From positions 248,001-312,000 of the forward strand of contig NZ_CADFDK010000003.1 in NCBI RefSeq assembly GCF_902832885.1: DNA of 64,000 nucleotides. The letters run 5' to 3'. The notes under the pieces are model-generated. The model was given only the letters and a program-made list of their open reading frames with translations, was not told the origin of the DNA and searched no databases. Position numbers and translations under genes: made by a program. The stretch comes from Burkholderia seminalis DSM 23518 (GTDB lineage Bacteria; Pseudomonadota; Gammaproteobacteria; Burkholderiales; Burkholderiaceae). Numbering within the stretch: the stretch's first letter is position 1; the number at the start of each line of letters is the position of its first letter. This document shows positions 4,323-37,021 of this stretch, piece after piece.

Positions 4323-5724
4323 GTAATTCCCCAGATTATGAATGGGTTTGTTCGAGGAATGAATCAAGTGAAGACTTCCATACAAGACATGTCGCGAACA
4401 GCAGAGGCATGCTAGAGGGTGGTTTTTATAATTACAAGATATTTCCGGTTGGATTAAATTTTCATATCGCTATCGTTAATCAAGTCATGATTTGGTGATG
4501 GATTTGAAATGGTCTTGTCGGCTTCGTCGGAGGCCTCGCCGGCATTGCATCGGCGGTGGATGACTGCGAGGCGTCTCGTGATGCTCAGCGCGGCGCGGGA
4601 CGCGGCTCGACGTGGGTCGGGAGGAATGAGCGAAGTGGAGCGGATTGAAAGCGGCCGCAGAAACTTGATTTATTAAACGTCGGTTTTGATTGTTGTCATT
4701 TGATACTGAATTTGCGAGCATGAATAATGATTGAGATATTTCAGTTTTTTGATGGCGAAGACTTTGAATCCACGTTGAGATTTGGGAGGACGCCCGCTAC
4801 GTAGCGAAATTTTGAACGTGAGGCCGTCAGATATTTTGATGCCGTGTTGATCGTGACCCGATGGCGGGTAATCCCGGTCGTGCCAGCTGCTGCCGGACTG
4901 ATCGTGTGACGGATATCGAGGCCGGCGACAGGCTTGCCGGGACCGGCCCAAACGCAGACGCTGCCGGTAGCTGCTTCGTCGAAGCGGGCGGCGCACCGCC
5001 GCGGGCGCGGGTGGCCGGGTTTATCCGGCCGACGGCTCGATGCTTGCAAGGGAGCGACGGATCGACCGTGGAGACACGAGCTTTCCAGAATCAACTGAGG
5101 GCATTCAATCGCAGCAGGCAAGCTCGGAATTATCAATAAAAAAGAGCAAATATCCGCAAAATATCGGGTTTGCCCGATGGTGCGGTATCGTACAAAGAAC
5201 GTCGGCAAAGTGACGGATCATTGGCCCGTCGGATTCAGTGCTGTAAAAAAACCTGAGGTGAAATCTGATGTCGACCCGCCATTCAATGAAATTTCGTTGA
5301 TTAGGTGAGCGGCATTTAGCGCGCGATTATTCTCGGTCGATCCTCGGTCGGGCAGTCGTTCTCGTTGAAATTTCGTACTCCATGACGTGCGGGCGCCGCG
5401 GCATCCATGCACGGGGGCACCTGTACGTCCGTTACTCGACGTCTTTCAGACGGATGCCGGACGGGGCGAGGAGTGCTCGCATAGCGCCGCTGAATTACCG
5501 TCCGGTTGCCGATTACGGTGAAAGGTCGACCGATTGATCTCGGCCGCCGGGATTTTATGCGCCGTTTGAGCAGGATTGATGCAAGGGTTTAATTCGGATT
5601 GGTCGATATGTCGCGTCGTTCGAAAGTTTAAATCTATTTAACGTGTTGATCTGCGTCGCAATCGCGGCGTTGTTCGATGCCCCGCTAGATGGATTATCTA
5701 GCAATTTGAAACTGGAGAAATGCA
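4323..5724. other. Long AT-rich intergenic region (1.4 kb)
   Basis: No open frame here has gene-like codon use. Base composition is visibly more AT-rich than the flanking genes, notably 4420-4500, 4670-4830 and 5540-5720. It must carry the divergent promoters of the protease gene and the microcin-like peptide gene. No immunity-protein-like ORF (short, hydrophobic, with an RBS) was found on either strand. Confidence 0.6.
5684..5702. promoter_or_regulatory. Short hairpin/palindrome in the leader of the peptide gene
   Basis: GCTAGAT-ggatt-ATCTAGC forms a perfect 7-bp stem with a 5-nt loop, ending 22 bp before the peptide start codon and just upstream of its GGAGAA ribosome-binding site (5714-5719). 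It could be an operator or an mRNA structure affecting translation. Confidence 0.4.
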
Positions 5725-5967
5725 ATGCAAGAACTGAATCAACAGGAAATCGCACAAGTTTCCGGCGGCTACTACAGCGGCCCGGGCATCCCGTCGGCGT
5801 TGGGCAACATCATCGAATGGGGCGGCAGCACCGCGGAGAGCATCGGCAATGCGCTGACGTTCGGCATCTTCGCCGCACCGGTCAAGCAGGCATACAACAT
5901 CGGCGAGACGATCACGACCGCCGCGGTGAACCTGCTGGACGGCCTGTTCGGCGGCCCGCAGTACTGA
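5725..5967 (+). CDS. Microcin/bacteriocin-like precursor peptide with double-glycine leader
   Basis: 80 residues. The first fifteen, MQELNQQEIAQVSGG, match class II microcin leaders such as that of microcin V in length and key positions: Leu4, Glu8, Ile9, Val12-Ser13 and Gly14-Gly15. Cleavage after Gly15 would release a 65-residue core beginning YYSGPG. The core has no Cys, is rich in Gly and Ala, and holds two hydrophobic stretches (around ALTFGIFAAPV and AVNLLDGLFGG), suggesting a membrane-active peptide. A GGAGAA RBS sits 5 bp upstream of the ATG. It directly precedes a full C39-ABC/HlyD/TolC exporter set, the normal partner of such leaders. No immunity gene was recognised. It could instead be a signalling peptide or a scaffold for modification. 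Confidence 0.8.
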   Translation: MQELNQQEIAQVSGGYYSGPGIPSALGNIIEWGGSTAESIGNALTFGIFAAPVKQAYNIGETITTAAVNLLDGLFGGPQY

Positions 5968-6131
5968 GTTGCCTGCATTGAGGCGACGCGGTAGCGGCCG
6001 CGTCTCCCGATGATGGAACTGACGATCCGGTATGCACGGGTCTTCCATGTATACCGGATCGCTTTTGCCTGTTCCGACGCGTGGAAGCGGAATGGACGCC
6101 GATACCGATATTGGGCGACACGTTGGTGAAA

Positions 6132-7403
6132 ATGGAGTTCGGTCTTTTTCGTTCTGAAGCGGCACAGGCTCGGCGCATGCGGGTGCTGGGCGACATCGTG
6201 CTGGTGCACCCTCTGTCCATGACGCTGCTGACGGTCGCCGCGATGGTCATGGCCACCTGCGTGGTGCTGTTCTTCACGTTCGGTACGTATACGCGGCGCA
6301 CGACGGTCTCCGGTGTGGTGATGCCGGATGCGGGCCTGGTCAAGGTCTATGCATTGCAGCCGGGCATCGTCGTCGAGCGCGACGTGAAGGAAGGGCAGCG
6401 CGTGACGCGCGGGCAGACGCTCTACACGGTGTCGACCGATTTGCAAAGCGCGGCGCAAGGTGCGACGCAGGCCGCGTTGATCGCGCAGGCGCGGCAGCGC
6501 AAGGCATCCCTGCTCGCGGAAATGGACAAGACCCGCAGCCTGCAGCAGGACGAGCGCGACACGCTGCGCGCGAAGATCGCCAACCTGAAAGGCGCGCTCG
6601 CGCAAATCGACGACCAGCTCGCGGCCCAGCGGCTGCGCACGTCGATCGCGGCCGACGGCGCCACGCGCTATCGCCGCCTGCTCGCGCAGGATTACATCTC
6701 GAAGGACCAGGCACAGCAGCGCGAGGCCGACCTGCTCGACCAGCAGTCGAAGCTGAACGGGCTGCTGCGCGACCGTGCATCGACGCTTCAGTCGCTCACC
6801 GAGGCGAGCAACGAACTGTCGGGGCTCGGCTTCAAGCAGCAGAACCAGCTCGCGCAGATCGACCGCAACGTGATCGACGTCGACCAGAACCTGATCGAAA
6901 GCGAGGCGAAGCGCCGGATCGTCGTCACCGCGCCGGAGGCGGGCATCGTCACGGCCGCGATCGCGGACGTCGGCCAGTCGGTCGATACGTCGCGGCCGCT
7001 CGCGAGTGTCGTGCCGGGCGGCGCGCGCTGGCAGGCGCACCTGTTCGTGCCGAGCACGGCGATCGGCTTCGTGCGGGCCGGCGAGCCGGTGCTGGTCCGC
7101 TATCAGGCATTCCCCTATCAGAAATTCGGCCAGTACGGGGCCACGGTCGTGTCGATCGCGCGCACGGCGCTGTCGGCGGCCGAACTCGCGAACGACGGCG
7201 GCCCGGCGGCGACCCCGGGCGAGGGGCGCGACGCGACGTTCTACCGTGTGATCGTCGCGCTCGACGCCCAGCACGTCACCGCATACGGCGCGCAGCAGCC
7301 GCTGCAGGCCGGCATGACGTTGCAGGCGGACATCCTGCAGGAACGCCGGCGCCTGTACGAATGGGTGCTCGAGCCGCTTTACAGCCTGACCGGCAAACTC
7401 TGA
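6132..7403 (+). CDS. HlyD/CvaA-type membrane fusion protein of a type I exporter
   Basis: 423 residues from the ATG at 6132. An in-frame GTG at 6081 lacks an RBS, and CvaA-like proteins begin with a similar LFRxEA segment, so the ATG is preferred. One membrane segment lies at about residues 30-52 (SMTLLTVAAMVMATCVVLFF). Lipoyl-like half-motifs flank a long coiled coil of Gln/Arg-rich helices (about residues 120-260), as in the adaptor that bridges inner-membrane ABC transporter and TolC. It sits 164 bp after the peptide gene and 11 bp before the ABC transporter gene, so it should serve peptide export. Confidence 0.88.
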   Translation: MEFGLFRSEAAQARRMRVLGDIVLVHPLSMTLLTVAAMVMATCVVLFFTFGTYTRRTTVSGVVMPDAGLVKVYALQPGIVVERDVKEGQRVTRGQTLYTVSTDLQSAAQGATQAALIAQARQRKASLLAEMDKTRSLQQDERDTLRAKIANLKGALAQIDDQLAAQRLRTSIAADGATRYRRLLAQDYISKDQAQQREADLLDQQSKLNGLLRDRASTLQSLTEASNELSGLGFKQQNQLAQIDRNVIDVDQNLIESEAKRRIVVTAPEAGIVTAAIADVGQSVDTSRPLASVVPGGARWQAHLFVPSTAIGFVRAGEPVLVRYQAFPYQKFGQYGATVVSIARTALSAAELANDGGPAATPGEGRDATFYRVIVALDAQHVTAYGAQQPLQAGMTLQADILQERRRLYEWVLEPLYSLTGKL

Positions 7404-7414
7404 CGGGCGCACGC

Positions 7415-9637
7415 ATGCGATTACTCGATCGACTCTCGTTCGGCCTCGGCCGCAAGCTGCCGATGGTCCTGCAGACCGAAGCGGCCGAATGCGGCATCGC
7501 ATGTCTCGCGATGGTGGCCGGTTATCACGGCCATCACGTGGATCTCGCGACGCTGCGCGCGCAGTTCCCCGTTTCGCTGAAAGGCGCGGGCCTCGGGCGC
7601 GTGATCGAGATCGCGCAGCGCCTGTCGCTCGGCACGCGCGCGGTGAAGCTCGACATGGCGCAGCTCGGCCAATTGCGCCTGCCGTGCCTGCTGCACTGGA
7701 ATTTCAACCACTTCGTCGTGCTGAAGGAAGTGAACGGCAAGACCGCGACGATCCACGATCCGTCGCACGGTATTCGCAAGGTATCGCTCGCCGATGTCTC
7801 GCGCGCGTTCACCGGCGTCGCGCTGGAGCTGTGGCCGAACGCCGGCTTCGCGCCGCGCGCGGCGCGGCCGGCGGTCAGGCTGCGCGAACTGCTGGGCCCG
7901 GTGTCGGGGTTGTCGCGCTCGCTCGCGCAGATCCTGGTGCTGGCGATCGCGCTCGAAGTCTTCATGCTCGTGCAGCCGTTCTTCCTGCAATGGGTGATCG
8001 ACGAAGTGATCGTCAGCGCCGATCGCGACCTGCTGACGGTGCTCGCGCTCGGCTTCGGCCTGTTGCTGCTGATGCAGCAAGCGACCGGCGCGATTCGCGC
8101 GTGGGCGCTGATGTATGTCGGCGTGACGCTCAACATCCAGTGGCGCGCGAACGTGTTCACGCATCTGCTGAGCCTGCCGGTGCGCTATTACGAACGCCGC
8201 CATCTCGGTGACGTCGTGTCTCGCTTCGGCTCGATCGACACGATCCAGCAGACGCTGACCACGTCGTTTCTCGGCGCGGTGATCGACGGGCTGATGACGC
8301 TCGTCACGCTGGCGATGATGTTCGTCTACAGCCGCACGCTCGGCTTCGTCGCGCTGGCGACGATGGCGCTGTACGCGCTTGTCCGATGGATGTGGTACGG
8401 CCCGTTGCGGCGCGCGACGGAGGACCAGATCGTGCACGCGGCCAAGCAGCAGAGCCATTTCCTCGAGACGGTGCGCGGCGTGAAGACGATCAAGCTGTTC
8501 AACCGCCAGACGGAGCGGCGCGCGAGCTGGATCACGCTGCTGGTCGAGCAAGTGAACGCGAGCCTGCACGTGCAGAAGCTGCAGATCTTCTATCAGCAGC
8601 TCAACGGGCTGCTGTTCGGCATCGAGAACGTGCTGGTCATCTGGCTCGGCGCGCGGATGGTGATGGACGGCCAGTTCACGGTCGGCGTGCTGATGGCGTT
8701 CAACGCGTACAAGAGTCAGTTCGACAGCCGGGTCGGCAGCCTGATCGACAAGTATTTCGAGGTCAAGATGCTGCAGTTGCAGGGCGAGCGGCTGGCCGAC
8801 ATCGTGTTCGCGGAAGCGGAACCCGACGCGAGCCTGCGCAGCGTGCCGGGCGAGGCGGACACGCTCGACGCGAGCATCGAGATCGACGGGCTGTCGTTCC
8901 GCTATGCGGACGGCGAGCCGCTGGTGCTGGACGGCGTCAATGCGATGATCGCGGCCGGCGAATCGGTCGCGATCGTCGGGCAGTCCGGTTGCGGGAAGAC
9001 GACGCTGATCAGCGTGCTGCTCGGGATTCACGAGCCGACGGGCGGCGCCGTGCGCATCGGCGGGCTCGACGTGGCCAGGCTCGGCATCGAGCGGCTGCGC
9101 GCGCTGGTCGGCACGGTGCTGCAGGACGACGTGCTGTTCGCGGGGTCGATCGCGGAGAACATCAGCTTCTTCGATCCGGAAGCGGACCCGGACTGGGTGG
9201 CCGAGTGCGCGCGCATCGCGGCCGTGCACGACGACATCGCGGCGATGCCGATGGGCTACAACACGCTCGTCGGTGACATGGGCACCGTGCTGTCCGGCGG
9301 CCAGAAGCAGCGCGTGCTGCTGGCGCGCGCGCTGTACAAGCGGCCGCGCATCCTGGTGCTCGACGAAGCGACGAGCCATCTCGACATTCAGCGCGAGATG
9401 CAGGTCAATGCGGCCGTCACGCAGCTCGCGATGACGCGGCTCATCGTCGCGCACCGGCCGGAGACGATCGCGTCCGCGCAGCGCGTCATCATGCTGCAAG
9501 GCGGGAAGGTCGTGCTCGATCAGTCGACCGCGGCGATGCGCGCGGCGGTCGCGGCGAAGTCGCATGCCGGCGTGCCGGCCGCGTCCCGGCCGGCACCGCA
9601 CGATGCCGGGCCGGTAGAGCCGGTGGCGGGGCGCTAG
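7415..9637 (+). CDS. Peptidase C39-containing bacteriocin-type ABC exporter
   Basis: 740 residues from the ATG at 7415. An N-terminal C39 cysteine peptidase carries catalytic Cys26 (QTEAAECGIACL), the His of FNHFVVL and the Asp of IHDPSHG. This domain removes double-glycine leaders. A six-helix transmembrane domain spans about residues 165-440, then an ATPase domain with Walker A GQSGCGKTT near residue 522, LSGGQ near 626, and ILVLDEATSHLD. All catalytic residues seem intact, unlike the inactive C39-like domains of RTX exporters. With the adaptor before it and TolC directly after (adjacent codons), it forms a CvaAB-TolC-like machine for the peptide at 5725. Confidence 0.93.
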   Translation: MRLLDRLSFGLGRKLPMVLQTEAAECGIACLAMVAGYHGHHVDLATLRAQFPVSLKGAGLGRVIEIAQRLSLGTRAVKLDMAQLGQLRLPCLLHWNFNHFVVLKEVNGKTATIHDPSHGIRKVSLADVSRAFTGVALELWPNAGFAPRAARPAVRLRELLGPVSGLSRSLAQILVLAIALEVFMLVQPFFLQWVIDEVIVSADRDLLTVLALGFGLLLLMQQATGAIRAWALMYVGVTLNIQWRANVFTHLLSLPVRYYERRHLGDVVSRFGSIDTIQQTLTTSFLGAVIDGLMTLVTLAMMFVYSRTLGFVALATMALYALVRWMWYGPLRRATEDQIVHAAKQQSHFLETVRGVKTIKLFNRQTERRASWITLLVEQVNASLHVQKLQIFYQQLNGLLFGIENVLVIWLGARMVMDGQFTVGVLMAFNAYKSQFDSRVGSLIDKYFEVKMLQLQGERLADIVFAEAEPDASLRSVPGEADTLDASIEIDGLSFRYADGEPLVLDGVNAMIAAGESVAIVGQSGCGKTTLISVLLGIHEPTGGAVRIGGLDVARLGIERLRALVGTVLQDDVLFAGSIAENISFFDPEADPDWVAECARIAAVHDDIAAMPMGYNTLVGDMGTVLSGGQKQRVLLARALYKRPRILVLDEATSHLDIQREMQVNAAVTQLAMTRLIVAHRPETIASAQRVIMLQGGKVVLDQSTAAMRAAVAAKSHAGVPAASRPAPHDAGPVEPVAGR

Positions 9638-11065
9638 ATGATGAAGCGATCATTCGCCGTCGTGCTGACCGCCGTTGCGCTGGCCGCCGCGCTGCCCGCA
9701 AGCGCGCAGATGCTCGACATCTATCGCACGCGCGACGACGTCGCGGCGACGCAGGCCGGGTCGATGGCATCGGCCACCGCGTGCGGCGCACGGCGCCTCG
9801 ACGACCGGCCGCTCGCGCTGGAGGACGCGATCCTGCTCGCGATCTGCTCCCATCCGCAACTGAGCCGCACGTGGGCGGATGCACGCGCGGCGACGGCCGA
9901 GGTCGGCGTGTCGAAGGCCGCGTACCTGCCGACGCTGAACGCGACGGCCGGGATCCAGCGCGACAACGTGAACACGACCTATACGGGCGGATTCTCCGGC
10001 GATCAGCGCAGCACCAGCCGTTACGGCATGCTCAACCTGAGCTGGGTGCTGTTCGATTTCGGCAAGCGCGGCGCGAACCTCGACCGTGCGCGTGCGTTGC
10101 TGCGCGCGGCCAACGCGGCGCACGACGACGCGTTGCAGAGCGTCTTCTTCGACGCGGCGCAGGCGTTTTATGCGCTGCGCGATGCGCAGGCGGCGCTCGA
10201 GGCCGCCCAGGCGGTCGAACATGCGGCGCAGGAGAGCCTGGCCGAAGCAAGCGCGCGGCATGACGGCGGCGCCGGCACGCTCGGCGACGCGTTGCAGGCG
10301 CAGACGAACTATCGCAAGGCGCTGCTCGACCGCGTGAGCGCGGAGGGCGACCTGCAGAACGCGATCGGCACGCTCGCGACGACGCTCGGCGCGGACGCCG
10401 ACACGCCGCTGCGGATCGCCGACGCGGAACCGTCGCCCGATCGCGACGATTTCACGCGCGGCGTCGCGAACCTGATCGCCGAGGCGAAGCGCGATCACCC
10501 GAAACTGATCGCCGCCCGCGAGCGGCTCGAAGCGGCGCGCGACCAGATCCGCGCGGTGCGCGCCCAGTCGCTGCCGACGATTTCGCTGATGGGCAGCCTC
10601 TCGCGCAACAACCCGTCGTACCAGCAGCAGCCGTCGCTGTTCCAGTTGCGGAGCAGTCACAGCAACTCGATCGGCATCCAGGTTTCGATTCCGCTGTTCG
10701 AGGGATTCGCATCCGGGTATCGCATCGCGCAGGCGAAGGCGCAGGCCGATGCGCAGGAAGCCGATGTGCGCAGTACCGAACTCAAGGTGTCGCTCGACGT
10801 GTGGAAGAGCTACCAGAGCTTGCAAACCGACACGACGAACCTCGACAACTCGCAGCATCTGCTCGACACCGCGCTGCATTCGCTCGACATCGCCCGCGGC
10901 CGCTACAAGGCCGGGGTCGGCACGTTCACGGAACTGCTGAATGCGCAGTCGGCGCTCGCGGATGCGCGCCGGCAGCGCGTGCTCGCGGTGTCGAGGTGGC
11001 GGACCGCGAGACTGAAGCTGGCCGAGAGCCTTGGGAGGTTGGGATTATGGAACGACGCGAGTTGA
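9638..11065 (+). CDS. TolC-family outer membrane efflux protein
   Basis: 475 residues with a Sec signal peptide (cleavage near ASA-Q at residue 23), followed by two repeats of long amphipathic helices typical of the TolC/OEP family; the closing motif GVGTFTELLNAQSALADARRQ is characteristic. It starts immediately after the stop of the ABC transporter and supplies the outer-membrane channel. Its last 19 bp overlap the start of the acyltransferase gene, whose RBS (GGGAGG, 11034) lies inside tolC. This ties the export genes and the polyketide genes into one transcription unit. Confidence 0.92.
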   Translation: MMKRSFAVVLTAVALAAALPASAQMLDIYRTRDDVAATQAGSMASATACGARRLDDRPLALEDAILLAICSHPQLSRTWADARAATAEVGVSKAAYLPTLNATAGIQRDNVNTTYTGGFSGDQRSTSRYGMLNLSWVLFDFGKRGANLDRARALLRAANAAHDDALQSVFFDAAQAFYALRDAQAALEAAQAVEHAAQESLAEASARHDGGAGTLGDALQAQTNYRKALLDRVSAEGDLQNAIGTLATTLGADADTPLRIADAEPSPDRDDFTRGVANLIAEAKRDHPKLIAARERLEAARDQIRAVRAQSLPTISLMGSLSRNNPSYQQQPSLFQLRSSHSNSIGIQVSIPLFEGFASGYRIAQAKAQADAQEADVRSTELKVSLDVWKSYQSLQTDTTNLDNSQHLLDTALHSLDIARGRYKAGVGTFTELLNAQSALADARRQRVLAVSRWRTARLKLAESLGRLGLWNDAS

Positions 11066-12082
11066 ACGGTACCGGGCCGAACGTGGGCGACGCGCAAGCG
11101 TGCGGCTGCGCGTTCCTGTTCCCGGGACAAGGGGCGTTCTATGCGGGCGCGTTGCGGCAACTCGGGCGAGAACACCGCGGCGTGCGGCAGACGCTCGACG
11201 CGATCGACGCGGTCGCGAGCGAGCGGCTCGGCCAGCCGCTGACCGGCGCGCTGTGGCGCGACGATGCGGGGCTCGATACGTGGCTGCGCGAGGCGCCCGA
11301 CTTGTTGCAGCTCGGGATCTTCGGCGCATCGGTCGGGATGTTCGGCGTGCTGCGCGAACGCGGCGTCGTCCCCGACCTGCTGATCGGACACAGCTTCGGC
11401 GAAATCGCGGCGCTGGTGTGCGGCGGCGTGTATTCGATCGAGCAGGGCGCGCGCATCGTGTGCGACCGGATTGCGTCGTTGCAGGCCGCGGCGCCGGCCG
11501 ACGGCATGATGGCCGCGATTTCGGCCGGCGCCGACGCGACACTCGCGCTGATCGACGCGAGCGCGATCACGCACGGGGTGCGCAACGTCTGCATCGCGGT
11601 CGAGAACCACGCGTCGCAGACCGTCGTGTCCGGCCCGCGCGACGCGCTGGAAGGTTTCGTCGCGGCCTGCGCGGCGCGCGGCGTGACCGCACAGACGCTC
11701 CGGTCTCCGTATGGCTTTCATCACCCCGACCTGGCCGGCGCGCGCGCAGTTCGCCGCGCGGCTTGCCGCCTATCGACCCGGCGCACTCGCGATTCCGGTG
11801 TATTCGCCGATCCTCGGCCGCCGCTATAGCGGCGCCGACGATCCCGGCATGCGGCTCGCGTCGCATTTCGTGATGCCGGTGCGCTTCGCGGACGCGATTC
11901 GCGCCGCGCGCGCGGACGGCATCGCCCGCTACGTCGAGTGCGGCGCGCTCAATGCGCTGGCACGCATCGTCGTGCGCATCGCCGGGCCGGGCGCGGTCAG
12001 GACGTTCGGCGGCCCGACGAGCGTGGCAGAGGAATCGAGCGTCGTCACGACGATCACCCGTTATTTCCAGGAGGACAGCATC
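11047..12082 (+). pseudogene. Malonyl/acyl-transferase domain gene, split by a frameshift
   Basis: From the ATG at 11047 the frame encodes an FabD/AT domain: FPGQGAFY at the N-terminus, the nucleophile motif GHSFGE, and YGFHHP with the substrate-choosing/catalytic His. Homology then jumps to the next frame (ARAQFAARLAAY... PVYSPILGR... YVECGAL), while the first frame runs on to a stop at 11829. The switch lies in a GC dinucleotide run at about 11738-11748; loss of one GC unit would explain it. The second frame continues open into the acyl carrier protein, so the ancestral gene may have encoded an AT-ACP fusion. It may be a true mutation, a slippage switch or a sequencing error. Confidence 0.75.
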
Positions 12083-12637
12083 ATGAAGGACGATATTCGC
12101 ATCGGCAACGCCGGCTCCGGCTTCGACGCGTTCTGGCAAGCGCGCGGACCGCACATCGTCGACTGGCTCAAGGGCGAACTGCGTCACGCGTTCGACGCGG
12201 CGGGCACGGTGTCGGGAGGCACCGCACCGACGGCGACGCCACTCGCGCCGCAGCCGGACCCGATTCTCGCGCCCGCGCCGCGCCTCGCGGCAGTGGGTGG
12301 AGCGGCGCTGGCGCCGGTTCCGGCGCCGCCGAGTGAGGGGGCGCCCGCGGCGGTTGCCGCGGCGCGGCCCGCGCACGTGCCGCGCGAGCGGCTGTTCTCG
12401 GAGCTTGTCGATATCTACGCGCAGGCGATGGAATATCCGGCCGAGGTGTTCTCCGAATCGATCGAGCTCGAAGCCGAACTCGGTATCGACTCGGTCAAGC
12501 AGACCGAGATCATCCAGCGCATCACCGCGCGCTATGCGTTGCCGCCGCTGCCCGCGAATTTCCGCAGCGGCGACTTCAAGGCGATGGGGCAGATCGTCGA
12601 TTTCGTCTACGAAAACCAGGGAAAGGCGCTCGCCTGA
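12083..12637 (+). CDS. Acyl carrier protein (PUFA-synthase/polyketide type)
   Basis: 184 residues from the ATG at 12083, preceded by a strong RBS (CCAGGAGG at 12067-12074), so it can be translated despite the frameshift upstream. The N-terminal ~50 residues and an Ala/Pro-rich linker precede a carrier domain with ELGIDSVKQTE, in which Ser is the phosphopantetheine attachment site. LGIDSVK resembles ACPs of PUFA synthases and enediyne-type systems. It lies in the same frame as the 3' part of the acyltransferase and could also be made as a fusion. No phosphopantetheinyl transferase is visible in the window. Confidence 0.85.
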   Translation: MKDDIRIGNAGSGFDAFWQARGPHIVDWLKGELRHAFDAAGTVSGGTAPTATPLAPQPDPILAPAPRLAAVGGAALAPVPAPPSEGAPAAVAAARPAHVPRERLFSELVDIYAQAMEYPAEVFSESIELEAELGIDSVKQTEIIQRITARYALPPLPANFRSGDFKAMGQIVDFVYENQGKALA

Positions 12638-12711
12638 CGGCCGTGCGCCGAAACGTTGGTCGGCAGGGGGGCCCTGCCCGTAATCACAAGTTCTCGATAG
12701 GCAGGCGATCC

Positions 12712-22709: not shown

Positions 22710-22729
22710 ACGGAAAGGGGAGATCCACC

Positions 22730-24130: not shown

Positions 24131-24843
24131 GCCTCGTGAACGTCGAACACCTGTCGAAGACCTACCTGCTCGACAGCGTGCGCGTGACCGGGCTCGCCGA
24201 CGTGTCGGCGACGCTCGAGGCCGGGCGCTTCACCGTGTTGAGCGGCCCGTCGGGCAGCGGCAAGACGACGCTGCTGAACATGATCGGCTGCATCGACCGT
24301 CCCGACAGCGGGCGCGTGACGATCGCGGGCCACGATACCGCGTCGTTGTCCGACGATGCGTTGTCCGATTTCCGCGCGCGCCATGTCGGCCACGTGTTCC
24401 AGACCTTCAACCTGCTGCCGGTGCTGTCCGCGTACGAGAACGTCGAGTACCCGCTGCTGATGGCGGGCTGGGCGCCGGCCCGGCGCGCGGCGCGCGTGCG
24501 CGACCTGCTCGACGCGGTCGGGCTGGCCGACAAGGGACGGCACCGGCCGAGCCAGCTGTCGGGCGGCCAGCGCCAGCGCGTCGCGATCGCGCGGGCGCTG
24601 GCCGCCGAGCCCGCGATGGTGCTGGCGGACGAACCCACCGCGAACCTCGACAGCGCCACCGGCCACGCGATCATCGCGCTGATGCGCACGATCCAGCGCG
24701 AGCGCGACGTGTCGTTCATCGTGTCGTCGCACGATCCGCAGGTGGTGAGCGTCGCCGACGAGGTGATCCGGATTCTCGACGGCCGCATCGTCGGCCGGGA
24801 ACGGGCCGGCGACGGCACGGTGGCGCAGGAGGTGTGCCGATGA
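24127..24843 (+). CDS. LolD/MacB-type ABC transporter ATPase
   Basis: 238 residues. Walker A GPSGSGKTT, Q-loop FQTFNLLP, signature LSGGQRQR, Walker B VLADEPTANLD. The length and the LNxxGxxDxPxSG pattern place it in the MacB/LolD/FtsE group, whose partners are four-helix FtsX-fold permeases that extract or move lipoproteins, peptides or lipids by mechanotransmission rather than by true channels. It overlaps its neighbours by 4 bp on both sides and pairs with the permease that follows. Confidence 0.93.
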   Translation: MSLVNVEHLSKTYLLDSVRVTGLADVSATLEAGRFTVLSGPSGSGKTTLLNMIGCIDRPDSGRVTIAGHDTASLSDDALSDFRARHVGHVFQTFNLLPVLSAYENVEYPLLMAGWAPARRAARVRDLLDAVGLADKGRHRPSQLSGGQRQRVAIARALAAEPAMVLADEPTANLDSATGHAIIALMRTIQRERDVSFIVSSHDPQVVSVADEVIRILDGRIVGRERAGDGTVAQEVCR

Positions 24844-26249
24844 TCCATACGCTGATGCTCGCGCTGCGCAACCTGCAGCGCAACCGCCGGCGCTCGCTGA
24901 CCACGCTGCTCGCGATGATCGTCGGCGTCAGTGCGATCCTGCTGTTCGGCGGTTTCAGCCGCGACATCACGCTCGGACTGCAAACCGACTTCGTGCAGCG
25001 CAGCGGCCATCTGCAGATCCAGCGGCAGGGCTATTACCTGTACGGCACGGGCGATCCGGCCGCGTACGGGATCCGCCGCTATGCGGCGCTGATCGACCTC
25101 CTGCGGCGCGACCCGCAGCTCGCGCCGCTGCTGCAGGTCGTCACGCCGACGCTGCAGTTCGGCGGCATCGCCGGCAATTTCGCGGCCGGCGTGTCGCGCA
25201 CCGTGATGGGATTCGGCGCGATTCCCGACGACCAGTACCGGATGCAGCAGTGGAACGCCTACGGTTTTCCGCTGCGCCCGCGCGCGTTCGCGCTGCGCGG
25301 CAGCGCCGACGACGCGGCGGTGGTCGGTCTCGGCGTCGCGCGCGTGCTGCATCTGTGCGGGCCGCTGCACGTGGCGGACTGCCGCGATGCGCCGCCGGGG
25401 CCGGCCGCGCCCGCCGCCGCCGGCCCGGACGCGAGTGCGCCGGCCGACGTGCTCGCGCTCGCGCAGGGCGAGGCCGGCTCGCAGCCGGCCGGCGACGGCG
25501 CAACCCACATCGAGGTGCTGACCGCGAGCGCGGGCGGCGCGCCGAACGTCGGCCGCTTCTCGGTCGTGAAGGCCGAGCAGCAGGGCGTGAAGGAGCTCGA
25601 CGACGTATATCTCGCGGTGCGCCTGCCGCAGGCGCAGCGGCTCGTATACGGCGGCGCCGAACCGCGCGCGACCGCGCTCGAGATCCAGCTCGCGCGCACG
25701 GCCGATCTGCCGGCGGCGCGCGCGCGCATCGAGCAGCTGCTGCGCGGCGGCTTCGACGGCCAGCCGCTCGACGTCGTCGATTTCGCGACGCTGAACCCGT
25801 TCTACGACCAGACCAACCGGATGTTCTCGGTGATCTTCGGCTTCGTGTTCGTGCTGATCAGCGCGATCGTGCTGTTCGTGATCAGCAACACGATGAGCAC
25901 CGCGATCATCGAGCGCACGGTCGAAATCGGCACGCTGCGCGCGATGGGCATGCGGCGCGGCGGCATTCAGGCGCTGTTCGTCTGCGAGGGCGCGCTGCTC
26001 GGCGTGGCCGGCGCATCGCTCGGCGTGCTGGCGGCGCTCGCGATTGCCGCGGCCGTCAATCACAGCGGGCTGGCCTGGACGCCGCCCGCGCGCATCGACG
26101 CGGTCGCGCTCACGGTGCGCGTGTGGGGCGAGTGGCGAACCATCGCGGTCACGTTCGCGGGGCTCGCATGCGTGGCCGGGCTGTCCGCGTGGCTGCCGTC
26201 GCGGCACGCGGCGCGGCTGTCGATCGTCGATGCGCTGCGGCATGTGTGA
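24840..26249 (+). CDS. FtsX/LolC-E-type ABC permease
   Basis: 469 residues with one membrane segment at the N-terminus (about 22-42, TTLLAMIVGVSAILLFGG), a periplasmic domain of about 280 residues, and three C-terminal segments (around 333-355, 383-408 and 430-455). This is the FtsX/LolE topology. The cytoplasmic loop TVEIGTLRAMGMRRGGI is the family hallmark. The periplasmic domain carries an Ala/Pro-rich insertion near residues 180-205. Only one permease is present, so the transporter should be a homodimer, as in MacB-like systems. Linked to the LolA-like gene 51 bp downstream. Confidence 0.9.
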   Translation: MIHTLMLALRNLQRNRRRSLTTLLAMIVGVSAILLFGGFSRDITLGLQTDFVQRSGHLQIQRQGYYLYGTGDPAAYGIRRYAALIDLLRRDPQLAPLLQVVTPTLQFGGIAGNFAAGVSRTVMGFGAIPDDQYRMQQWNAYGFPLRPRAFALRGSADDAAVVGLGVARVLHLCGPLHVADCRDAPPGPAAPAAAGPDASAPADVLALAQGEAGSQPAGDGATHIEVLTASAGGAPNVGRFSVVKAEQQGVKELDDVYLAVRLPQAQRLVYGGAEPRATALEIQLARTADLPAARARIEQLLRGGFDGQPLDVVDFATLNPFYDQTNRMFSVIFGFVFVLISAIVLFVISNTMSTAIIERTVEIGTLRAMGMRRGGIQALFVCEGALLGVAGASLGVLAALAIAAAVNHSGLAWTPPARIDAVALTVRVWGEWRTIAVTFAGLACVAGLSAWLPSRHAARLSIVDALRHV

Positions 26250-26300
26250 CGCCGTGCGGATGCGGTCATTTTCGTTCATTTCACTTTCGGGAGAGCGCAC

Positions 26301-27080
26301 GTGCGTCGCCTGTTCGTTTCATGCTGTCTGAGTCTTTCGTTCCTGGCCGGCGCCGCGCACGCGCAGCCGGCGCCCGATCCGCAGAAGGTGCTCGCGGCGA
26401 GCGACGCGATCCGCGCGCCGGCGAAATCGTTCGTGCTGACCGCGACGCTGATCGAGTATCGGTCGGGCAAGCAGGTGGACGGCAATACGCTGTCGATCTA
26501 TTCGAAGCCCGACGCGCCGGGCGGCGCGTTCCGCACGCTGGTGCGCTTCGTCGCGCCGGCGCGCGACACGGGCAAGCTGATGCTGAAGAACGGCAACGAC
26601 CTGTGGTTCTACGATCCCGCGAACCAGGCGAGCGTGCGAATCTCGCCCGACCAGCGGCTGCTCGGGCAGGCCGCTAACGGCGACGTCGTGACGGTCAATC
26701 TCGCGCACGACTACACGGCCGAGCTGAAGGGCGTCGAGGACATCGCCGACGGCGACCGGCAGACCCGCCGCGCCTACCGGCTCGGGCTCACCGGCCACGG
26801 CGACGGGCTCACGTACCGCCGCATCGAGATCTGGATCGACGCGGCGAACAACCGGCCGCTGAAGGCGCGCTTCTATTCGGAAAGCGACCGGCTGCTGAAG
26901 ACCGCGTTCTACCGGCGCTACACGATGCAGCTCGGCGTCGAGCGGCCGACGGAGACGGTCATCATCGACGGGCTCGACAGCAACTGGGTCACGGTCATGC
27001 GTTTCTCCGACTACGCATGGCGCGACATTCCCGATGCATGGCTGCAGCGCGACTACCTGTCCCGCTTCCAGGCGCAATGA
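26301..27080 (+). CDS. LolA-like periplasmic carrier (outer-membrane lipoprotein-sorting protein family)
   Basis: 259 residues from a GTG at 26301 preceded by RBS GGGAGAG (26289-26295). A signal peptide ends at AHA-QP near residue 22. The mature part shows the LolA-like concave beta-sheet pattern: TATLIEYRSGK, TLVRFVAPARDTGKLML, and LWFYDPANQ. Proteins of this type commonly accompany LolE-like or MMPL exporters and carry hydrophobic cargo through the periplasm. Here it follows the LolDE-like pair and overlaps the next gene by 4 bp, suggesting a dedicated lipid shuttle rather than the housekeeping LolA. Confidence 0.85.
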   Translation: MRRLFVSCCLSLSFLAGAAHAQPAPDPQKVLAASDAIRAPAKSFVLTATLIEYRSGKQVDGNTLSIYSKPDAPGGAFRTLVRFVAPARDTGKLMLKNGNDLWFYDPANQASVRISPDQRLLGQAANGDVVTVNLAHDYTAELKGVEDIADGDRQTRRAYRLGLTGHGDGLTYRRIEIWIDAANNRPLKARFYSESDRLLKTAFYRRYTMQLGVERPTETVIIDGLDSNWVTVMRFSDYAWRDIPDAWLQRDYLSRFQAQ

Positions 27081-28393
27081 CGGCGCGGCGTCGATGTCGG
27101 GTCGCCGCGCTCGCGTTCGTGCTGCTGCCGGCGCTCGCGCGTGCGGCGCCGGCCGGCGCGGAGGCGACGAGCGGGGCGGGCGGCGTGGATGCGGCCGATG
27201 CCGCGGCGCTCGATCTCGCCGACCGGTCCGCCACCGCGCCGGCCGATACCGCGAAGCCGTGGAAGCTCGACGTGCAGGACGCGTTGCGTGCGAGCCGCTA
27301 TCGCGACGGCGCGCACGCCGGGCGCAACCAGCTGTCGGTCGAATTCGAGTACGGGCAGTGGCTGACGCCGACGTTCGCCGCGCACTTCTCGATGCGCTTC
27401 GACCGGTTCGATCCGCTCGGGACCTCGCGCACGTCGTCGCGCGACGTGACGCTCGTGAAGGAGGCGTACGCGAGCTGGCGCGCGGCGCCGACGTTCGTTG
27501 TCGACGCGGGGCGCGTCAACGAGCGGCTCGGCGCGGCGATCGGCTACAACCCGACCGACTTCTTTCGCGCGGGCGCGGTGAGCCTCGACGTGCCGCCCGA
27601 TCCGGACAGCCGCCACACGAACCGGCTCGGTACGGTCGCGCTGCGCGCGCAGCAGGTGTGGGACACGGGCTCGCTCGCGGCGCTGCTGTCGCCGCGGCTC
27701 GAGCGCCGCAGCCTGCCGGGCGACCCGGCCGCATCGTCCGACCTGCAGCGTACCAACGGCGTCGATCGCTGGATGCTGGTCGCGAGCCAGCGGCTCAGCA
27801 CGGCGATCCAGCCGCAATGGATCGTCTACGGCGAAAGCGGGCAGGCGCCGCAGTTCGGCCAGAACCTGAGCGTGCTGCTCGGCAACTCGGTGGTCGCCTA
27901 CGTCGAATGGGCGGGCGGCTACCGGCGCTCGCTGATCGCGCGCGCGACCGGTGCGGCCGGCGACAGCGCGTTCCGCACCAGCTCGTCGGTGGGCGCGACC
28001 TGGACGTTGCCGATCGACCTGTCGCTGAGTGCCGAGTTCCAGAGCAACGGCGGCGGCGCGGACGCCGCGCAATGGCGCGCGCTGCAGCGCGCGAACCCGG
28101 TCGCCTGGGGCAGTGCGGTGCAGACGTCGATCGCCGCGCAGGAGCTGCAAACCCGTCACGGCGTGTTCCTGATGGCGGCATGGCGCAATATCGGCGTGCG
28201 CCGTCTGGATCTGTCGGGCTTCATGCAGGCCGATCTCGGCGGCGGCCGGCAATACTGGGTCGAGCTGCGGCGGCGCTTCGACCGGTTCGACGTCGCGCTG
28301 CAGTGGCTGCATCAGGGCGGGCCGTCGTGGAGCCGCTTCGGTGCGATGCCGGAGTCGACCAGCGTGCAGGTGCTGGGCATTTTCTATCGATGA
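27077..28393 (+). CDS. Predicted outer-membrane beta-barrel protein
   Basis: 438 residues; start overlaps the LolA-like stop (ATGA). Signal peptide to about residue 23 (ALARA-AP). The rest shows alternating amphipathic strands of barrel type (for example LSVEFEYGQWLTPTFAAHFSMRF), Arg/Asp-rich turns, and a C-terminal strand ending in an aromatic-Arg pair (VLGIFYR), close to the terminal aromatic typical of barrels. Similar barrels occur next to LolA-like/LolE-like genes in many proteobacteria, but I cannot name the family with certainty. It probably receives or displays the cargo at the outer membrane. Confidence 0.7.
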   Translation: MTARRRCRVAALAFVLLPALARAAPAGAEATSGAGGVDAADAAALDLADRSATAPADTAKPWKLDVQDALRASRYRDGAHAGRNQLSVEFEYGQWLTPTFAAHFSMRFDRFDPLGTSRTSSRDVTLVKEAYASWRAAPTFVVDAGRVNERLGAAIGYNPTDFFRAGAVSLDVPPDPDSRHTNRLGTVALRAQQVWDTGSLAALLSPRLERRSLPGDPAASSDLQRTNGVDRWMLVASQRLSTAIQPQWIVYGESGQAPQFGQNLSVLLGNSVVAYVEWAGGYRRSLIARATGAAGDSAFRTSSSVGATWTLPIDLSLSAEFQSNGGGADAAQWRALQRANPVAWGSAVQTSIAAQELQTRHGVFLMAAWRNIGVRRLDLSGFMQADLGGGRQYWVELRRRFDRFDVALQWLHQGGPSWSRFGAMPESTSVQVLGIFYR

Positions 28394-28409
28394 CGCAAGG
28401 AGGTTTCGA

Positions 28410-29931
<1,522 letters not shown>

Positions 29932-29934
29932 GCG

Positions 29935-30951
29935 ATGACGGTCCGGACGATGCTGTCTCGCACCGTGCTCCATGGCGCCGTCGGCGTGCTCGCGGCCACG
30001 GCGGTATGGCATGCGCTCGACCGGCCGGCGGCGTCGCCGCAAGCCGCTGCGCTGCCTGCCGCGCGCGTCGTGGTGCCCGACGCGGCGGTGCCGCGGCCCG
30101 TGCCTGCCGCGTCCGACGTCGCGCCGCCCGCGTCGCTGGCGGGCTCGCGCGCGCCGCGCCTGCCGCTCGGGCCGGACGGGCGTCTCGCGAAACGGCGTGC
30201 GGTGCGGGAATTCTTCGATTACTTCCTGCTCGCGCAGCACGACCTGACGCCGGACGCGCTCGACGCGCTGGTTGCGCGGGAGGTCGCCGCGCAGCCGATC
30301 GGCGGGCAGGCACAGCGCGAAGCGCTCGACCTGTGGCCGCGCTATCGCGCGTGTCTCGCCGCGCTCGATGCGCAGCCGGGCGCCGTGCAGCCCGGCATGC
30401 GTATCGATCCGGACGCGCTCGCGGGCCAGCTCGAGCGACGGGCGGCACTCGCGAGCCGCTGGCTCGGCGACTGGAGCGCGCCGTTCTTCGCCGACGAGTT
30501 CCGGCAGCAGCATGACGACCTCGACCGGATCCGGATTGCGCGCGACCCGGCATTGAGCGACGCGCAGAAGCGCGAACGCATTGCGGCGCTCGACCAGTCG
30601 TTGCCGCCGGACATGCGCGATGCGCATGAGCGGCTCGCGCGGCAGCGCGAGGCGGTTGCACGGCTCGACGCGCAGCGCGCGACGCCCGATGCGCTGCGTG
30701 CGCAGCTCGGCGCCGACGTCGCGGCACGCGTCGTACGGCTGCGGCAGGACGACGATGCGTGGCAGGCGCGCTATCGCGACCATGCGGCCGAACGTGAGCG
30801 GCTCGCCGCGCAACAGCTTGGGCCCGATGCGCGCGATGCCCAGCTCGCGCAATTGCTGCGGCGCGATTTTCCGGATCCGGCGGACGCACTGCGCGCCGCG
30901 TCGCTGGACGCGGACAGCGCGGACATCACCGCTCGCCAGCGCGCGCGATAA
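29935..30951 (+). CDS. Lipase-specific foldase (Lif/LipB)
   Basis: 338 residues with an N-terminal membrane anchor (about 9-24), an Ala/Pro-rich linker, and a helical domain. The foldase hallmark RxxFDYFLxA is seen as RAVREFFDYFLLAQ near residue 88. Many Arg/Gln/Ala-rich helices wrap the lipase in the known Lif structure. It folds the lipase in the periplasm before type II secretion and lies immediately downstream of it, as in all I.1/I.2 lipase operons. Confidence 0.93.
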   Translation: MTVRTMLSRTVLHGAVGVLAATAVWHALDRPAASPQAAALPAARVVVPDAAVPRPVPAASDVAPPASLAGSRAPRLPLGPDGRLAKRRAVREFFDYFLLAQHDLTPDALDALVAREVAAQPIGGQAQREALDLWPRYRACLAALDAQPGAVQPGMRIDPDALAGQLERRAALASRWLGDWSAPFFADEFRQQHDDLDRIRIARDPALSDAQKRERIAALDQSLPPDMRDAHERLARQREAVARLDAQRATPDALRAQLGADVAARVVRLRQDDDAWQARYRDHAAERERLAAQQLGPDARDAQLAQLLRRDFPDPADALRAASLDADSADITARQRAR

Positions 30952-31382
30952 CCGCCCGGCGCCGGCATCCCGGGCAGGCGCCGTCATGGATCTTCCACGT
31001 TCTCCGTTGGAGAAGTGTGGGATATGTCACTCAGTCCGCATTATTTCGATGGGGGAATGATTTTTATTTTCAGGATTAACTGCATTCCATTGCATTGGCC
31101 ACTATTCGGAATTTTCAATGATTCTCCGGGAAGGTGCCTTTTCAAGGGAGGCATTTAAATCGCCGATAATTGATTGACCATGCAAATATCCTCGGGAAAC
31201 ACCTGAAACTGTCAAATTACTTCATGTAACAAAGCCGGAGTGGCGCGAACGACAGGGCTGCGTGATACCTTTTTGTTTAATTAGACCGTAAGGAAAACGG
31301 CAAAACCGGAAAACCGGTTCGTTTTAACGCTGCATGAAGATTCGGTGGCCGAGGGGCAGCAATACAACGTACGAGGTGCACC
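30952..31382. other. Intergenic region (431 bp) ending the biosynthetic block
   Basis: No gene seen. A 7-bp GC stem (CGGCGCC at 30957-30963 with 30977-30983) just after the foldase stop may terminate the operon. AT-rich DNA follows (31040-31280), and a perfect inverted repeat AACCGG-aaaa-CCGGTT at 31304-31319 lies 64 bp before the next gene and could be its operator. Confidence 0.55.
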
Positions 31383-32159: not shown

Positions 32160-32321
32160 TGGCCGCAGCCTCCTGCCGCGCGGCCGGCACCGGCGTGCCG
32201 CCGCGACGGCGTGTGCGCCGGCGCGTCGCGCGCAGGGAAGGGGCGAGATCCGGGCGCAAGACGCGTCGCGACGCGGCTGGCCGGCGGTATCGAGAAGAAT
32301 CAGAAAAGCAGTCAATCAGGT

Positions 32322-34721: not shown

Positions 34722-34741
34722 ACCAAGCGAGGAACGAACGC

Positions 34742-37012: not shown

Positions 37013-37021
37013 GCGACTCCT

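What the first reader, a model, noticed from the sequence alone, without database searches (positions are those of the whole stretch)
5725..31000. Collinear peptide exporter plus PUFA/polyketide-like synthase plus Lol-type lipid exporter: one composite system?
A microcin-type precursor, its C39/HlyD/TolC exporter, a complete iterative synthase with oxidative tailoring, and a LolD-LolE-LolA-barrel module with lipase/foldase run on one strand with mostly overlapping or very short junctions. TolC and the acyltransferase overlap by 19 bp, so peptide export and lipid synthesis appear transcriptionally coupled. I know of no described system combining these parts. The peptide might be acylated, or peptide and lipid might be delivered together to the outer membrane or a competitor.
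Basis: partly seen in the sequence, partly recalled or inferred. Interest (0 to 1): 0.88.

Follow-up and report, generated by a model that had tools for sequence, protein, structure and literature searches.

The report
Mobile lipid-and-secreted-peptide gene block
In this Burkholderia genome a gene block that makes and exports an unusual lipid also encodes a small secreted helical peptide whose close relatives, in the genomes compared, were found only where the lipid genes are, so lipid and peptide probably work together outside the cell.

Summary
The gene order is real: GG-leader peptide, HlyD, C39-ABC, TolC, AT-ACP, SDR-KS-CLF-KR-DH, P450-KR-DH, FMO, LolD/LolE/LolA-like, barrel, DUF4345, lipase, foldase, all on one strand, TolC/AT overlapping by 19 bp. 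Two corrections. In this genome the AT frame is interrupted (open in 24 of 24 relative loci that could be compared). The unit runs on to about 36.35 kb (Crp-like regulator, GGDEF-EAL, UndA homologue, response regulator): the same ~31-kb block sits in at least three genomic contexts.
'One composite system' is supported. In 65 Burkholderia genomes peptide and synthase occur in the same 16, not linked in 7. In 398 family genomes the 15 with strong peptide hits all have the synthase. Paraburkholderia ginsengisoli keeps both in one locus with the exporter at the other end. The synthase does occur without the peptide elsewhere.
Acylation is not supported. All 14 peptide cores examined have an ~11/3 amphipathic-helix periodicity (mean peak 97.5 degrees), typical of lipid-coating helices. 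Best reading: a secreted peptide that coats or solubilises a separately exported lipid. The unit is well supported; the mechanism is inferred.

The parts
5080..36343 (+). whole conserved block (approximate ends)
   Evidence: flank comparison of 9 linked genomes: similarity to this genome begins ~570-670 bp before the peptide ATG (6 of 8 relatives align there) and ends 7.48-7.68 kb after the lipase start (8 of 8)
5684..5702 (.). palindrome GCTAGATGGATTATCTAGC just upstream of the peptide's ribosome-binding site
   Evidence: a like element precedes two control GG peptides of this exporter type (L104, L113), so it belongs to the peptide/exporter cassette
5725..5967 (+). 80-aa GG-leader precursor peptide (leader MQELNQQEIAQVSGG, core 65 aa)
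   Evidence: family alignments A1, A2; ~11/3 amphipathic periodicity
5975..6085 (+). strong RNA hairpins between peptide and exporter (possible attenuator)
   Evidence: MFE -54.2 kcal/mol, z -4.26
6132..7403 (+). HlyD-type adaptor (an upstream GTG start at 6081 is possible)
   Evidence: Pfam HlyD_3 1.1e-16
7415..9637 (+). C39 peptidase-ABC exporter (longer ORF starts at 7361)
   Evidence: Pfam Peptidase_C39 1.3e-35, ABC_membrane, ABC_tran
9638..11065 (+). TolC-type outer-membrane efflux protein
   Evidence: Pfam OEP 7.2e-67
11047..11829 (+). acyltransferase, N-terminal part (frame interrupted in this genome)
   Evidence: Acyl_transf_1 3.3e-24 for the ORF 10801-11829; frame open in 24 of 24 relative loci compared
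11711..12637 (+). rest of the acyltransferase plus ACP (GIDSVK motif), in another frame
   Evidence: NCBIfam PfaA ACP region 9.7e-10; translation
12712..18690 (+). SDR-KS-CLF-KR-DH secondary-lipid synthase
   Evidence: NCBIfam PKS_plus_SDR 2.1e-100 and PfaA 5e-91, both below cut-off
18687..22709 (+). P450-KR fusion protein with a further C-terminal region (read as DH)
   Evidence: Pfam p450 1.7e-86, KR 7.5e-21
22745..24130 (+). flavin-dependent monooxygenase
   Evidence: Pfam FMO-like 7.7e-64
24127..24843 (+). LolD-like ATPase
   Evidence: Pfam ABC_tran 9.5e-33
24840..26249 (+). LolC/E/MacB-like permease
   Evidence: Pfam FtsX 4.8e-16; NCBIfam lolCE 55.7 bits, below its cut-off of 362; PDB matches to LolC/LolE/LolF/MacB
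26301..27080 (+). LolA-like periplasmic carrier
   Evidence: Pfam LolA_like 3.2e-34; PDB 3buu 1.2e-38
27077..28393 (+). putative outer-membrane barrel
   Evidence: no family hit; strand-rich low-confidence model
28410..28826 (+). DUF4345 protein
   Evidence: Pfam 9.9e-22
28819..29931 (+). cluster-specific secreted lipase
   Evidence: ortholog at the synthase locus in 16 of 16 synthase genomes, each with a further, lower-scoring lipase elsewhere
29935..30951 (+). lipase-specific foldase
   Evidence: Pfam Lipase_chap 9.8e-31
31383..32159 (+). Crp-like regulator
   Evidence: Pfam HTH_Crp_2 2.3e-14
32211..34721 (+). PAS-GGDEF-EAL cyclic-di-GMP protein
   Evidence: a 47-53% relative follows the lipase in 6 of 7 non-Bcc loci read, the seventh being cut there
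34736..35479 (+). UndA-type iron oxidase (fatty-acid decarboxylase homologue)
   Evidence: phmmer to UndA 6p5q 7e-72 over residues 2-246; Pfam Haem_oxygenas_2
35597..36343 (+). OmpR-type response regulator

Best explanation
The block is one functional unit for a secreted lipid-peptide product. Shown: the genes form one conserved ~31-kb block, and the peptide family depends on the synthase in its distribution. Inferred: (1) AT-ACP, KS-CLF-KR-DH and KR-DH build a long acyl chain iteratively; P450, FMO and the UndA homologue oxidise or decarboxylate it. (2) LolD/LolE pull the lipid from the inner membrane, the LolA-like protein carries it across the periplasm and the barrel passes it to the outer membrane or outside. 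(3) C39-ABC/HlyD/TolC cleave the leader and secrete the peptide. (4) Outside, the peptide folds on the lipid as a long 11/3 amphipathic helix and coats, solubilises or anchors it, as apolipoproteins and perilipins do; no covalent bond is needed. (5) The secreted lipase trims or releases the lipid, and cyclic-di-GMP and the regulators tie production to surface life.
For: Same 16 of 65 genomes carry peptide and synthase; 15 of 15 strong peptide genomes among 398 have the synthase. On the rpoB tree (64 of 65 genomes; G053 dropped, no rpoB match) the label needs 10 changes and 8 of 8 independent pairs agree. Peptide linked in two gene orders. Block recurs in at least three contexts with the same ends. 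The lipid exporter changes with the envelope: LolDE/LolA/barrel in 12 of 17 loci, all Burkholderia or Paraburkholderia, MMPL next to the same core in Kitasatospora. Peptide cores: 14 of 14 (homologous, so not independent) peak at 96-101 degrees, mean spectrum peak 97.5, power 9.1; 5 of 609 65-aa windows of 16 other proteins pass the same mark; six other GG peptides peak at 88.5, 88, 83.5, 97.5, 63.5 and 43.5. No coding-like immunity ORF between peptide and HlyD in five loci read; the window gap is 113-164 bp. Cluster-specific lipase in 16 of 16.
Against: The synthase occurs without the peptide in seven genomes reached through named loci. In the nine Bcc genomes the genes are physically linked, so those co-changes are not independent of linkage; the seven unlinked genomes fall in two deep clades. 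G017 and G021 have only pair-type peptides, weak with A1 (5.5e-6, 8.7e-6). Three of four control GG peptides also have a helical moment above shuffles (p 0.016, 0.002, 0.002; at 88, 88 and 97 degrees), so amphipathicity alone is not special: the angle is. One control (L120) peaks at 97.5 too. AlphaFold gave low confidence for the peptide (pLDDT 52, helices predicted). The foldase was not found beside the lipase in the non-Bcc Burkholderia loci read. Amphipathic helices also occur in membrane-killing peptides. No chemistry is known.
Confidence: 0.4

Rival explanations
1. The peptide is the substrate: the synthase's acyl chain is attached to it (for example at the new N-terminus or a side chain) before C39 export, giving an acylated ribosomal peptide.
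For: Dependence of peptide on synthase; no thioesterase domain seen among the block's scanned proteins, so the chain needs an acceptor. PUFA-type synthases are known to feed peptide products, there made by NRPS (PMC13291983, abstract and passages).
Against: No GNAT-type acyltransferase among the block's proteins scanned; 5 of 12 cores have no Lys, none has Cys, and no core column has K/C, S/T, Y or D/E in 10 or more of 12; a separate lipid exporter exists; the synthase occurs without the peptide.
Confidence: 0.2
2. The peptide is an ordinary microcin or two-peptide bacteriocin that kills competitors, and the lipid is an adjuvant or a permeabilising or protecting factor.
For: GG leader and C39 exporter; tandem peptide pairs in G017, G021, G036; the same exporter family stands beside other GG peptides in 3 of 8 synthase-free genomes read; weak Pfam bacteriocin matches for some family members (Bacteriocin_IIc 4 of 12, best 0.007; MccV 2 of 12, best 0.0022).
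Against: No coding-like immunity ORF between peptide and HlyD; GxxxG not above shuffles in 12 of 12 cores (lowest fraction 0.088), while the four control peptides counted have 10-12; no Pfam match for the window peptide.
Confidence: 0.2
3. Two independent systems share a mobile island; the co-occurrence is hitch-hiking.
For: The block recurs in several contexts, so linked genes would move together; the exporter and the synthase each occur without the other.
Against: Peptide and synthase co-occur also when not linked, in 7 genomes of two clades, four of them in assemblies of 2-4 contigs (G017, G021, G036, G052), and are linked in a second gene order in P. ginsengisoli; 0 of 49 synthase-free genomes match A1.
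Confidence: 0.2

Closest known systems
PUFA-type secondary lipid synthases (PMC3098273, passages) and their NRPS-PKS hybrids zeamine, fabclavine, megapolipeptin, chitinimine (PMC13291983, abstract and passages)
   Same: KS-CLF, AT, ACP, KR, DH iterative machinery; coupling of a specialised lipid to a peptide; Burkholderiales members
   Different: Here the peptide is ribosomal with a GG leader and type I exporter, no NRPS found in the block; one ACP seen, AT-ACP fused, SDR at the N-terminus, P450-KR fusion, no PfaD found; the word Burkholderia does not occur in the held text of PMC3098273
Class II microcins / Cdz glycine-zipper bacteriocins (PMC5380434, passages)
   Same: small hydrophobic peptide, type I exporter; Cdz-like systems reported in B. 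cepacia
   Different: No glycine-zipper excess, no adjacent immunity gene seen, association with a lipid synthase
Fatty-acylated ribosomal peptides (nostolysamides: PMC13060382, search listing only; selidamides, lipolanthines: recalled)
   Same: ribosomal peptide plus fatty-acid metabolism
   Different: no dedicated acyltransferase or conserved acceptor residue found; own iterative synthase and lipid exporter
Perilipin/apolipoprotein/synuclein 11-mer helices (PMC5889406, passages)
   Same: coherent ~11/3 amphipathic helix; here G/A/S/T-rich and weakly charged
   Different: secreted bacterial peptide with a core of 49-79 aa; no sequence homology claimed
Aryl-polyene and heterocyst-glycolipid export modules (recalled)
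   Same: lipid synthase next to LolA-like/MMPL or DevBCA-TolC lipid exporters
   Different: LolD-LolE-LolA-barrel set plus an independent peptide exporter

Membership tests
PUFA-type secondary lipid synthase | tandem KS and CLF domains | tested here: met
   ketoacyl-synthase matches; by eye a first KS with TACSS and a second KS-like region without Cys at that place
PUFA-type secondary lipid synthase | AT, KR, DH domains | tested here: met
   the AT frame is interrupted in this genome but open in 24 of 24 relative loci compared
PUFA-type secondary lipid synthase | tandem ACPs and a PfaD enoyl reductase (canonical Pfa; recalled) | tested here: not met
   one ACP region seen; no PfaD among the block proteins scanned; TIGR02813 305 bits, cut-off 1010
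PUFA-type secondary lipid synthase | partner PPTase | tested here: inconclusive
   PF01648 gene in the P. ginsengisoli and Kitasatospora loci, by eye also in L131 and L132; none among the window proteins scanned; the genome was not searched for one
GG-leader microcin/bacteriocin | double-glycine leader and C39 exporter | tested here: met
GG-leader microcin/bacteriocin | adjacent immunity gene | tested here: not met
   no coding-like ORF between peptide and HlyD in L066, L069-L071 and L073; only 113-164 bp in the window
GG-leader microcin/bacteriocin | killing of sensitive bacteria | not testable with these tools
   needs assay
Cdz-type glycine-zipper system | extended GxxxG repeats | tested here: not met
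   0-5 GxxxG per core, 12 of 12 not above shuffles
Fatty-acylated RiPP | acyltransferase and conserved acceptor residue | tested here: not met
   no such family in the block's proteins scanned; no conserved K/C column
Fatty-acylated RiPP | acyl group on the mature peptide | not testable with these tools
   needs mass spectrometry
LolCDE lipoprotein exporter | NCBIfam lolCE score above cut-off | tested here: not met
   55.7 of 362 bits: may work like Lol, not a member
LipA/foldase lipase pair | alpha/beta hydrolase followed by Lipase_chap foldase | tested here: met
   window and P. ginsengisoli; no foldase match beside the lipase in the non-Bcc Burkholderia loci read
UndA iron oxidase | full-length homology to UndA | tested here: met
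   phmmer 7e-72 over residues 2-246 of 247; catalytic residues not checked one by one
11/3 lipid-surface amphipathic helix | coherent hydrophobic periodicity near 98 degrees over the core | tested here: met
   14 of 14 cores
11/3 lipid-surface amphipathic helix | folding on lipid contact | not testable with these tools
   needs circular dichroism

The most novel reading that the evidence does not exclude
A bacterial lipoprotein-particle system: bacteria secrete apolipoprotein-like amphipathic peptides through a microcin-type exporter to package, outside the cell, a dedicated lipid exported by its own Lol-type pathway, under cyclic-di-GMP control and with a lipase to unload it.
Probability: 0.28. 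Interest if true: 0.92.

Novelty: new variant of a known kind. Interest (0 to 1): 0.76.

Why it matters
It ties two classes of natural-product machinery that are normally treated apart, iterative lipid synthases and GG-leader peptides, in one conserved unit, and gives the peptide a testable non-killing role (lipid binding). If right, other small secreted 'microcin-like' peptides may be lipid carriers or surfactants, and the periodicity test used here could find them.

Tried and rejected
Rejected: the acylated-peptide reading as first choice (no acyltransferase found, no conserved Lys/Cys); glycine-zipper toxin; lipase as a chance housekeeping neighbour (a cluster copy plus a lower-scoring copy elsewhere in 16 of 16); the exporter as a specific marker of the system (present in 8 synthase-free genomes too).

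Led nowhere: promoter/terminator scans of 4400-13000 and 18500-31500 gave counts not clearly above shuffles, so separate promoters are neither shown nor excluded; barrel prediction was too poor for a fold search; the peptide profile against PDB gave only chance hits (best E 0.32); PADLOC gave only generic ABC and LolE-type matches. Literature searches found no description of the combination (open-licence PubMed Central only). The palindrome upstream of the peptides is not specific to synthase-linked peptides, and matches with up to three mismatches are expected by chance in the window.

Corrected on checking: an earlier count of five genomic contexts was too high. Longer flanks of six genomes, with the nine-genome comparison, show that seven of the nine linked genomes share one neighbourhood with insertions or deletions at the block's ends; certain contexts are three.

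Not independent: alignment A2 was built from hits of A1 and linked peptides, so A2 scores partly repeat the selection; the genus co-occurrence claim rests on A1, built from five linked Burkholderia-type peptides and one Paraburkholderia peptide. With A2 at E <= 0.1, 30 of 65 genomes match: the 16, with best E-values of 5.3e-22 or better, and 14 synthase-free ones with weak matches (best 1e-5 in G016).
Full report
What is there. On the + strand between 5725 and 30951 lie, in order, an 80-aa GG-leader peptide, HlyD, C39-ABC, TolC, an acyltransferase-ACP gene, a 1992-aa SDR-KS-CLF-KR-DH protein, a P450-KR-DH protein, a flavin monooxygenase, LolD-, LolE- and LolA-like proteins, a putative barrel, DUF4345, a lipase and its foldase. 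Of 14 junctions, 6 overlap by 4-19 bp, one abuts and the rest have gaps of 3-74 bp, except peptide/HlyD (113-164 bp). The TolC/AT overlap of 19 bp is the same in 7 of 7 linked relatives checked, which argues that it is maintained. Between peptide and HlyD lies a very stable hairpin region (z -4.26), as expected where a peptide is made in excess over its exporter (inference).

A broken gene. In this genome the acyltransferase frame is interrupted: its N-terminal part and its C-terminal part with the ACP lie in different frames that overlap at 11711-11829. In 24 of 24 relative loci compared (19 different genomes; five genomes were fetched twice) both parts lie in one open frame; L006, L015, L016 and L076 were dropped because the second query's first part did not match there (in L006 one search lists one 541-aa ORF). 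The genome is a 55-contig draft, so this may be an assembly error or a real loss.

The real extent. I compared the flanks of nine genomes that carry the linked arrangement, and longer flanks (about 20 kb) of six of them, five on each side. Upstream, similarity to this genome stops 570-670 bp before the peptide in the six relatives that align there; G035 and G053 show no similarity above the cut-off. Downstream, similarity of this genome to all eight others ends 7.48-7.68 kb after the lipase start, at about window 36.3-36.5 kb, just before ATP-synthase genes. Beyond these ends this genome and G031 match none of the others; G023, G043, G054 and G061 share one neighbourhood, G035/G053 share it with about 7.4 kb extra upstream and other differences downstream, and G060 shares its downstream side. 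So there are at least three contexts with the same block ends. The block also contains a Crp-like regulator, a PAS-GGDEF-EAL protein, an UndA homologue (E 7e-72 to UndA) and an OmpR-type regulator. The same ~31-kb block in different contexts is what a unit under joint selection or joint transfer looks like.

Distribution. A 629-aa part of the synthase gave 16 of 65 Burkholderia genomes at E <= 4e-286 and 72% identity or more; the next best match was 2.8e-53 at 43%. The peptide profile A1 gave 16 of 65 at E <= 0.001: the same 16. Fourteen score 3.8e-16 or better; G017 (5.5e-6) and G021 (8.7e-6) carry only a tandem pair of more distant peptides. In 7 of the 16 (G017, G021, G025, G036, G038, G042, G052) peptide and synthase lie on different contigs or, for the closest peptide of G036, 1.6 Mb apart; G017, G021, G036 and G052 are assemblies of 2-4 contigs, the other three are drafts. 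In five of the seven a peptide stands next to a HlyD-C39-TolC set with 79-82% identical C39 (G017, G021, G036, G042, G052); in G025 and G038 peptides and exporter were on separate contigs. In 398 genomes of the family, 17 have the synthase; 18 match A2 at E <= 0.001, of which 15 are strong (E <= 5.3e-22) and all 15 have the synthase, while three weak ones (G016 1e-5, G027 1.2e-4, G290 3e-4) do not. Two of the 17, G340 and G401 (genus g20), lack the peptide.

Against the simple story. Of eight genomes reached through named loci, seven have the synthase but neither the peptide nor a close exporter: those of L006, L007, L012 (Paraburkholderia), L015 (labelled Burkholderia sp. SRS-W-2-2016), Kitasatospora, Streptomyces and a Symbiobacteriaceae MAG. 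So the synthase does not need the peptide. C39 orthologs of 71% identity or more (some with internal stops) occur in 8 synthase-free Burkholderia (G011, G016, G024, G027, G044, G048, G051, G056); beside 3 of the 8 my motif scan found other GG peptides (G016, G027, G056). The exporter is thus a general cassette; the specific partner of the synthase is the peptide family.

Relatedness. On an rpoB tree of 64 genomes (G053 dropped: no rpoB match) the synthase label needs 10 changes and 8 of 8 independent pairs agree with the peptide label, sign test p 0.008. Most of these pairs are in Bcc-type genomes where both sit in one block, so they show joint inheritance rather than independent co-selection. 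The seven unlinked genomes form two deep clades. I therefore count about two independent unlinked co-occurrences plus two linked gene orders.

A second gene order. In Paraburkholderia ginsengisoli (29-kb contig) the order is peptide, AT-ACP, KS, P450, FMO, LolD, LolE, LolA, barrel, DUF4345, a PPTase, lipase, foldase, HlyD, C39, TolC, all on one strand: the peptide stays first, the exporter sits at the other end.

The lipid side. AT, ACP and KS parts match in 17 of 17 loci, from Burkholderia to Streptomyces and a Symbiobacteriaceae MAG. LolD, LolE, LolA and barrel follow in 12 of 17, all Burkholderia or Paraburkholderia; L007 has only a LolD fragment, L015 is cut by its contig end, and L013, L016 and L017 lack the set. 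The Kitasatospora locus has an MMPL transporter, a SnoaL-like protein and a PPTase instead. MMPL proteins are lipid exporters of Gram-positive envelopes (established knowledge). The swap with envelope type supports an exported lipid product. The cluster's lipase has an ortholog at the synthase locus in 16 of 16 synthase genomes, each with a lower-scoring second lipase; 63 of 65 genomes have some lipase of this family. The foldase is next to it in the window and P. ginsengisoli but was not matched beside the lipase in the non-Bcc Burkholderia loci read; there a GGDEF-EAL relative follows the lipase in 6 of 7 loci, the seventh being cut. Product structure is unknown; the UndA homologue suggests oxidative decarboxylation to a terminal alkene somewhere in the pathway (inference).

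The peptide. The 12 cores of A2 (49-79 aa) are weakly acidic, have no Cys or Arg, 0-4 Lys and 37-55% G/A/S/T. GxxxG motifs are not above shuffles. Hydrophobicity is strongly periodic: all 14 distinct cores examined have their highest spectral peak at 96-101 degrees per residue; the mean spectrum peaks at 97.5 degrees with power 9.1 against about 1 for random order. They are homologues, so this is one family property, not 14 independent events. Shuffles of single cores reach the observed helical moment with p 0.002-0.034 in 12 of 12; three of four control GG peptides also exceed shuffles (p 0.016, 0.002, 0.002), but at 88, 88 and 97 degrees. Of 609 overlapping windows of 65 aa from 16 other proteins (15 from the block plus the neighbouring M4 peptidase), 5 pass the weakest peptide's mark. 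Six other GG peptides from the same or related exporter loci have their highest peak at 88.5, 88, 83.5, 97.5, 63.5 and 43.5 degrees. A value near 98.2 degrees is 11 residues in 3 turns, the helix of perilipin, apolipoprotein and synuclein repeats, whose folding in the last two depends on lipid contact (PMC5889406, passages). AlphaFold predicted two long helices with low confidence (pLDDT 52).

How it most likely works. Shown: one unit, peptide dependent on synthase in distribution. Inferred: lipid made by the iterative synthase, oxidised, exported by the Lol-like path; peptide cleaved and exported by C39; the two meet outside, where the peptide coats or solubilises the lipid; lipase and cyclic-di-GMP protein point to a controlled surface product. 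Rivals are covalent acylation, a lipid-assisted bacteriocin, and hitch-hiking on one island; evidence for and against each is given in its field.

What is known. Hybrid PUFA-type/NRPS/PKS lipids are described (PMC13291983, abstract and passages), as are secondary lipid synthases in general (PMC3098273, passages; the word Burkholderia does not occur in its held text) and Cdz-like systems, reported also in B. cepacia (PMC5380434, passages). I found no description of a PUFA-type synthase with a ribosomal GG peptide and type I exporter in the searches, which cover open-licence PubMed Central only. I rate it a new variant of a known kind; the apolipoprotein-like reading would be a new kind.

Noticed in passing
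window 5684-5702; L014, L063-L071, L073, L104, L113: A near-perfect palindrome GCYAGATGG..NATCTRGC precedes many GG peptides, with matching changes in both arms; operator or RNA hairpin. It is missing before the L062 peptide and also stands before two control peptides.
   Followed up: partly
window 36572-37939 (-): Genes for ATP-synthase epsilon and gamma subunits directly beyond the block's end (possibly a second F-type ATPase).
   Followed up: no
L006 and L012, first 8 kb: In two Paraburkholderia without the peptide the synthase is preceded by similar ORFs; in L006 these match a YadA-like adhesin, DUF2827 and a tryptophan halogenase, with TPR-like proteins between.
   Followed up: partly
L126 9697-11055 (-), L131, L132: A PPTase gene lies between DUF4345 and the lipase in P. 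ginsengisoli (Pfam) and, by eye, in two non-Bcc Burkholderia, but not at that place in the window.
   Followed up: partly
G042, G038, G036 (L062-L064, L068, L072, L073): Several peptide copies per genome, some without a close exporter within the stretch read, with different cores but one leader type.
   Followed up: partly
L007 20-22.5 kb: In Paraburkholderia sp. LEh10 no LolE, LolA or barrel match follows the synthase and LolD is a fragment: the lipid exporter seems decayed.
   Followed up: no
L104, L113, L110, L120: Exporter-linked GG peptides with glycine-zipper-like cores (10-12 GxxxG each), possibly true microcin- or Cdz-like peptides.
   Followed up: partly
window 2625-4385 (-): A thermolysin-type M4 metallopeptidase lies upstream, outside the conserved block.
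   Followed up: no
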